The position numbers and the translations under genes are program-made. Shown in pieces: positions 4,035 through 58,683 of a stretch of DNA of 64,000 nucleotides. The notes below the pieces were generated by a model, which ran no database searches, was not told the origin of the DNA, and was given only the letters and a program-made list of their open reading frames with translations. The DNA comes from Sipunculus nudus (taxonomy: Eukaryota > Annelida > Sipuncula > Golfingiida > Sipunculidae): assembly GCA_026874595.1 (NCBI GenBank), contig CM049307.1, positions 63,826,370-63,890,369 on the forward strand. Reading direction: 5' to 3'. Every line of letters starts with the position of its first letter. Positions within the stretch are counted from its first letter, which is position 1.

Positions 4035-4299
4035 TCAACTCTTAGACAGTGACTTCATGAAGGAATCCATGTCATACTCTGACTCGTACTGTTTTTCATC
4101 CCACAGTTCATCCATGTTTTCTAGCACAGCCTTGGCTGTGACAGGGCCTTCATCTGACTGTGACCTTGCCTTTGATGTGTGTCCTCTGCCATCATCCAGT
4201 GCAAACAGGTCAAGCAGCTGGTCTGTTCCCATGGAAGCGAGGCTGGTGTTGTCTTGACTGATGACTGTGTTGGCTATGTTCAGTTTGAACTTCTGTAAG
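4035..4299 (-). CDS. BTAF1: BTAF1 terminal exon 34
   Basis: Residues 1559-1646 and TGA at 4035-4037. Acceptor cctctacag. Encodes [35 protein letters not shown] and a conserved C-terminal motif [20 protein letters not shown], matching human 'LWDQEQYDSEYSLENFMHAL'. Confidence 0.96.

Positions 4300-58683: not shown

What the first reader, a model, noticed from the sequence alone, without database searches (positions are those of the whole stretch)
4035..58683. Tandem arrays in one gene repeatedly nucleated on splice junctions
At exons 8 and 14 (donors) and 7, 11 and 27 (acceptors), the tandem unit in the flanking intron is a copy of the exon-intron junction: ~10-45 nt of exon, the splice site and some intron. 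Exons 16, 17 and 22 show weaker versions. The array always extends into the intron, the exon stays intact, and unit lengths cluster at 35-48 bp. Ordinary intronic minisatellites have no reason to start exactly at splice sites, so some junction-linked process (R-loop or nick repair, template switching with spliced RNA, or selection for redundant splice sites) is suggested. I know of no described system of this kind.
Basis: partly seen in the sequence, partly recalled or inferred. Interest (0 to 1): 0.9.

Follow-up and report, generated by a model that had tools for sequence, protein, structure and literature searches.

The report
Minisatellites that copy exon-intron borders
Several introns of this animal gene are filled with tandem repeats whose repeated unit copies a neighbouring exon's edge with its splice site; this kind of repeat is already known from amphioxus under the name mirage, occurs in other genes of this genome too, and looks a few times more frequent at exon edges than random placement predicts.

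Summary
The core observation is real. The window holds a 34-exon BTAF1/Mot1-like gene on the minus strand. Exons 11, 16 and 17 fail; 22 is weak.

Dynein heavy-chain and SNF2 genes show it too: 9 of 19 multi-copy arrays straddle an exon edge, 3.1 expected. In 113 introns 9 of 16 arrays do, 2.3 expected; without BTAF1 5 of 9, 1.5 expected. Harsher nulls weaken this. Two-copy duplications show no significant excess.

Arrays do not begin exactly at splice sites: the junction lies at a random phase of the unit. Splice dinucleotides are not consistently kept in the copies, and three of four tested introns are older than their arrays. The kind is described: amphioxus 'mirages' (PMC3087553, PMC3902484).

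Best reading: ordinary local tandem duplication plus unequal exchange, exons kept intact by selection; the moderate excess at edges is unexplained.

The parts
4035..58683 (-). BTAF1/Mot1-like gene, 34 coding exons seen (earlier exons are expected beyond the window)
   Evidence: gene model; solved-structure matches
51857..53142 (-). 38-bp array (about 33 units) at the acceptor of exon 7 (exon 51745-51872); unit holds a branch-point-like CTAAC, ACAG and 13-16 nt of exon
46076..50311 (-). 48-bp array (about 88 units) at the donor of exon 8 (exon 50291-50414); unit holds up to 21 nt of exon, CAG|GT and intron
   Evidence: a 301-base piece matched no other place in the genome
37470..38664 (-). 25/48-bp array at the donor of exon 14 (exon 38617-38781); exon share diverged
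15690..15901 (-). 38-bp array (5-6 units) at the acceptor of exon 27 (exon 15573-15703)
26013..26600 (-). degenerate repeats of about 36 bp before the acceptor of exon 22; weak
   Evidence: score 34, gapped; not found by TRF
54041..54142 (-). two copies of 51 bp reaching 5 nt into exon 5 at its acceptor
15484..15608 (-). single old copy (24 of 30 nt) of the end of exon 27 in the following intron
34915..37137 (-). 47/136-bp arrays inside intron 14, not touching a junction
12356..13349 (-). 51-bp array inside intron 30, 62 nt from the donor, not straddling

Best explanation
These are 'mirage'-type minisatellites. A short segment (about 25-95 bp) that happens to span an exon-intron border is duplicated in tandem at the DNA level, by slippage or unequal exchange. 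The outermost exon-side copy stays the real exon edge because the protein and its splice site are under selection; the extra copies fall in the intron, are free to change, and then grow and are homogenised among themselves. Shown here: the exon 8 unit found at its own locus only, random phase of the junction in the unit, donors and acceptors both affected, no consistent splice-site constraint on copies, introns older than arrays in 3 of 4 tested cases. Inferred: the slippage and unequal-exchange steps, correct splicing, and whatever causes the remaining 2 to 4-fold excess at exon edges (a higher duplication rate of exon-containing DNA, or longer survival of arrays anchored on a constrained sequence).
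For: Unit phase uniform (KS p=0.74, n=13). Seven donor and six acceptor cases among the 13 straddling arrays (my assignment from the coordinates). Unit lengths multiples of 3 in 4 of 13 (listing), so no sign of in-frame use. Exon-proximal units more diverged than the middle in 2 of 7 arrays examined, as expected of concerted evolution with excluded edges: exon 8 (0.80-0.91 against 0.94) and one dynein array (first three 0.84-0.87 against 0.93). A 301-base piece of the exon 8 array matches only its own locus in 1.43 Gb (that search skips very common words). Tandem arrays are common in random DNA too: two of five random 8-kb stretches hold kilobase-scale arrays of 52-53 bp units. Three of four straddled dynein introns have the same position and phase in a paralog whose intron shows no array.
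Against: Uniform nucleation alone does not account for the number at exon edges: 9 of 16 against 2.26 expected, P=3.6e-5; with intron lengths halved 9 of 16 against 3.74, P=2.6e-3, and without BTAF1 5 of 9 against 2.48, P=0.057. The exon part of the copies is slightly better kept than the intron part in 5 of 7 arrays (by 0.01-0.06) and equal in 2, never worse, which could mean weak constraint. Five of 7 arrays show no clear fall in identity towards the exon. No polymorphism, RNA or outgroup data.
Confidence: 0.75

Rival explanations
1. A junction-linked mutational process (transcription, R-loop or splicing-complex linked breakage) creates tandem duplications preferentially across exon-intron borders.
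For: Excess at exon edges in BTAF1 and independent genes; one straddling array with 97% matches and so probably young (C1, 92 bp x 2.9).
Against: About 2-copy duplications, the earliest stage, show no significant excess: 4 of 18 against 2.3 expected (two of these four are stretches of arrays already counted as multi-copy), 2 of 11 against 1.14. Phase of the junction in the unit is random. Donors and acceptors equally affected. The contrast with many-copy arrays is itself not significant (Fisher p=0.11).
Confidence: 0.2
2. Selection favours redundant splice sites, so that junction-containing arrays are kept and enlarged.
For: AG intact in 34 of 34, 6 of 6 and 7 of 7 units of three acceptor arrays, GT in 5 of 5 of one donor array; exon part of units slightly better kept than the intron part in 5 of 7 arrays.
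Against: In three other arrays the dinucleotide is among the less conserved ones: 58 of 88 (rank 42 of 47), 8 of 10 (60 of 76), 21 of 33 (49 of 57). Unit lengths are not multiples of 3 in 9 of 13, so use of a distal site would shift the frame.
Confidence: 0.05
3. Intron birth: exonic tandem duplications with AG|GT created these introns (model of Rogers 1989, seen here only as cited).
For: Units contain splice sites and copies of exon sequence; recent human cases are reported (PMC2812944).
Against: Three of four tested straddled dynein introns sit at the same position and phase in a paralog without an array; the fourth is offset by four residues. Most of these arrays leave some 200-400 nt or more of other intron at the far end. 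Not testable for BTAF1.
Confidence: 0.03
4. No real excess: junction arrays are what uniform nucleation in short introns gives, and BTAF1 was picked for its look. (Compatible with the best explanation, which then needs no extra cause.)
For: Edge-distance null: without BTAF1 4 of 9 against 2.31 expected, P=0.17. Halved-intron null without BTAF1: P=0.04-0.15 over the thresholds tried.
Against: Straddle test without BTAF1: 9 of 19 against 3.1, P=1e-3; 5 of 9 against 1.54, P=6e-3.
Confidence: 0.2

Closest known systems
Amphioxus 'mirages' (globin genes BflGb6 and BflGb9, Adh3, TnC, PGBD5; PMC3087553, PMC3902484)
   Same: Minisatellite-like tandem duplications of exon-intron borders; 5' and 3' borders; many but not all units keep AG/GT; homogenised inside, edges excluded (passages seen).
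   Different: Another animal; the exon 8 array reaches 88 units and over 4 kb, against 2-7 units in the amphioxus passages that give counts; polymorphism and normal splicing reported there, untested here.
Human internal tandem repeats at exon-intron boundaries in segmental duplications (PMC2812944)
   Same: Minisatellites, on average 4 copies of 30 bp, some lying at borders and changing intron structure (passages seen).
   Different: Found in recently duplicated human genes and tied to novel introns; here long-standing genes, and introns shared with paralogs where tested.
Minisatellite with multiple splice donor sites in human 6-16/IFI6 (Turri 1995, cited in PMC4526556)
   Same: Repeat units that act as splice donors (citing passage and reference title seen; original not held).
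   Different: There the extra donors are reported as used; here use is unknown.

Membership tests
amphioxus-type mirages | tandem repeats span an exon-intron boundary and copy exon plus splice site | tested here: met
   13 of 26 multi-copy arrays overlap an exon edge by at least 3 nt, 4 of them in BTAF1. Four of the 13 edges come from paralog BLAST and are not refined splice sites
amphioxus-type mirages | both 5' and 3' boundaries can be duplicated | tested here: met
   7 donors, 6 acceptors, assigned from the coordinates
amphioxus-type mirages | many but not all units keep AG/GT | tested here: met
   58 of 88, 34 of 34, 6 of 6, 8 of 10, 21 of 33, 7 of 7, 5 of 5 units in the 7 arrays examined of 13
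amphioxus-type mirages | concerted evolution inside, cluster edge excluded | tested here: inconclusive
   seen in 2 of 7 arrays: exon 8 and the C9 dynein array
amphioxus-type mirages | normal splicing despite the repeats | not testable with these tools
   no RNA data held
amphioxus-type mirages | length polymorphism or somatic instability | not testable with these tools
   one assembly only
intron gain by tandem duplication | the intron is new at that position | tested here: not met
   3 of 4 straddled dynein introns shared by a paralog without array; not tested for BTAF1 and the SNF2 case

The most novel reading that the evidence does not exclude
Splice junctions are general hot spots for the growth (not the birth) of minisatellites in animals whose genomes are rich in them: once a duplication includes a constrained exon edge it expands or survives several times better than one inside an intron, a rule shared by this animal and amphioxus that my searches did not find measured genome-wide.
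Probability: 0.3. Interest if true: 0.65.

Novelty: new member of a known kind. Interest (0 to 1): 0.42.

Why it matters
If the excess holds genome-wide, it says that selection on exons or some property of exon edges steers where minisatellites grow, links intron growth to repeat turnover, and turns a curiosity known from a few amphioxus genes into something countable in any long-read animal genome. It also warns annotation pipelines: dozens of true-looking splice sites lie in such introns.

Tried and rejected
Exons 11, 16 and 17 as junction arrays: no alignment across the border worth the name. Dispersed mobile repeat: a piece of the exon 8 array matched its own locus only; the same question for exon 7 did not complete. 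Unit composition as the cause: arrays are on average 4-5 points richer in G+C than their introns, straddling and interior alike (p=0.07 each). Selection for in-frame use: 4 of 13 unit lengths are multiples of 3. The array at window 1-1449: it continues leftwards for about 1.1 kb and no exon was assigned to it. The exon 24 donor hit did not extend over the junction. The edge-distance null (8 of 16 against 3.65, P=0.01; without BTAF1 4 of 9 against 2.31, P=0.17) is weaker than the straddle tests and goes against them.

Rows left out before counts: of 157 dynein profile hits 98 were typed in, those in held stretches except some duplicated AAA_6 exon copies in L007 and one C10 hit; of the 89 SNF2 hits 19 were used, three in held stretches left out (C10:4703790, C9:53181658, C5:21060604) and one C12 hit trimmed by hand, whose intron then could not be resolved. 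Exon pairs with profile gaps outside -15 to 12 were skipped. Of 31 multi-copy arrays 5 were dropped for lying outside the annotated spans; one of them (C12 7035-7696) overlaps a coding-like segment and might have been a further straddling case. Splice-site refinement is weak (score under 12) in 12 of 68 dynein and 4 of 12 SNF2 introns, among them two straddled ones, C1 3216 and C9 2881, whose positions are however shared with paralogs. The coding segments come from BLAST between the stretches and may include transposon frames.

Full report
What is in the window. The window lies at C2:63826370-63890369 of a 1.43-Gb genome in 153 contigs. On its minus strand a gene of 34 exons (58683 down to 4035) was reconstructed by hand; every intron is GT-AG and the joined exons read as one frame of 1646 aa.

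Check of the cases. Exon 7 acceptor: a 38-bp unit with TTGATACAG|GTGCCTACTGTAG repeats through most of intron 6. Exon 8 donor: a 48-bp unit with ATAACCCTCAG|GTATGG fills most of intron 8. Exon 27 acceptor: a 38-bp unit with TTGACAG|GTGCTC. Exon 14 donor: the array starts 13 nt behind the donor and the exon end resembles it more than 207 other exon 60-mers do (score 28 against a maximum of 23). Exon 11 shows nothing (score 15), 16 and 17 nothing worth the name across the border, 22 a weak gapped match. Exon 5 has a two-copy version, and exon 27's donor one old copy.

More than chance? Three nulls were used. (a) Array edges within 30 nt of a junction, or spanning it, in 113 introns with known ends (33 of BTAF1, 68 of dynein heavy chains, 12 of SNF2 genes): 8 of 16 arrays, 3.65 expected, P=0.01; without BTAF1 4 of 9, 2.31 expected, P=0.17. 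(b) Arrays overlapping an exon edge by 3 nt or more, one unit re-placed uniformly in the gene span without its arrays: 13 of 26, 3.6 expected, P=3.6e-6; without BTAF1 9 of 19, 3.1 expected, P=1e-3; BTAF1 4 of 7, 0.4 expected, P=4.7e-4. (c) The same per intron: 9 of 16, 2.26 expected, P=3.6e-5; without BTAF1 5 of 9, 1.54 expected, P=6.4e-3; with introns halved, to allow for later insertions, 9 of 16 against 3.74 (P=2.6e-3) and without BTAF1 5 of 9 against 2.48 (P=0.057). So about a seventh to a quarter of the arrays would be expected at an edge anyway, because introns are short against the unit; the excess is 2 to 4-fold, not the near-exclusivity that the finding suggests. BTAF1 was picked for this look, so the other genes carry the weight, and there the numbers are small. 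Per position, interior points of introns of 900 nt or more are more often inside an array (52 of 239) than junctions are (4 of 66).

The other genes. Dynein heavy-chain and SNF2 stretches were chosen from profile hits, not by their repeats; 20 plus 5 stretches were read of 60 first asked for, joined to 16 blocks. Clear cases: C2 intron 12603, a 77-bp unit with 46 nt of exon, 10 copies; C9 intron 2881, 58 bp with 12 nt of exon, 32-33 copies; C1 intron 3216, 92 bp with 30 nt, 2.9 copies at 97% matches; C6 intron 21883, 53 bp with 7 nt; C12 intron 5045, 25 bp with 9 nt; four more where the exon edge comes from comparison with paralogs. Ten of the 19 arrays there do not straddle an edge. Of five random 8-kb stretches, one is a 52-bp array from end to end and another holds 3.2 kb of a 53-bp array: minisatellites are plentiful outside these genes too.

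Anatomy against mechanism. If a process acted at the splice site itself, the junction should sit at a fixed place in the unit; its place is compatible with uniform. If redundant splice sites were selected, their dinucleotides should be the best kept; they are complete in four arrays (34 of 34, 6 of 6, 7 of 7, 5 of 5) and poorly kept in three (58 of 88, 8 of 10, 21 of 33). The exon part of the copies is equal to or slightly better kept than the intron part (difference 0 to 0.06, higher in 5 of 7), far from what coding constraint would give, though the direction is consistent. If the introns were born from the arrays, they should be new; three of four tested ones have the same position and phase in a dynein paralog with no array, the fourth is offset by four residues. 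A 301-base piece of the exon 8 array matched nothing else in the genome. What remains is local tandem duplication, growth by unequal exchange, and selection that keeps the exon and the outermost splice site. About 2-copy duplications show no significant excess at edges (4 of 18 against 2.3; 2 of 11 against 1.14), which hints that the excess comes with growth or survival and not with birth, but the contrast is not significant (Fisher p=0.11).

What is known. [quoted passage not shown] of PMC3902484). Human tandem repeats at exon-intron boundaries are described in PMC2812944 (passages) and a human minisatellite with multiple donors is cited in PMC4526556. No genome-wide test of enrichment at junctions, and no mollusc case, turned up in the ten searches made (listings only, open-licence papers only).

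Verdict. A true, well-marked example of a known kind, in a gene and apparently an animal group where my searches found no report, with larger arrays and a first rough enrichment estimate. The cause of the remaining excess is open.

Noticed in passing
G000 contigs C61, C62, C66, C72, C73, C75, C89, C99 and C74: Intronless full-length chaperonin frame (547 aa) with the same score at nine places on eight contigs, plus a split one on C74: probably bacterial contigs, symbiont or contaminant, in the assembly.
   Followed up: no
C6:39308505-39316367 (L007): Four successive copies of the dynein AAA_6 exon covering profile positions about 82-119: tandemly duplicated, possibly alternative exons.
   Followed up: no
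window 10968-12085 and 42196-42943; 43855-44637 and 61925-62715: Two kinds of tandem-structured repeats of about 280 bp and 301 bp, each seen at two places in the window with look-alike units.
   Followed up: no
window 1-1449 and L035:376-1500: A 45/92-bp array continues left of the window to about 2.6 kb in all; no exon assigned.
   Followed up: partly
window 51259-51522: Perfect two-copy duplication of 131 bp inside intron 7, apparently very recent.
   Followed up: no
L030: A random 8-kb stretch is wholly a 52-bp tandem array.
   Followed up: no
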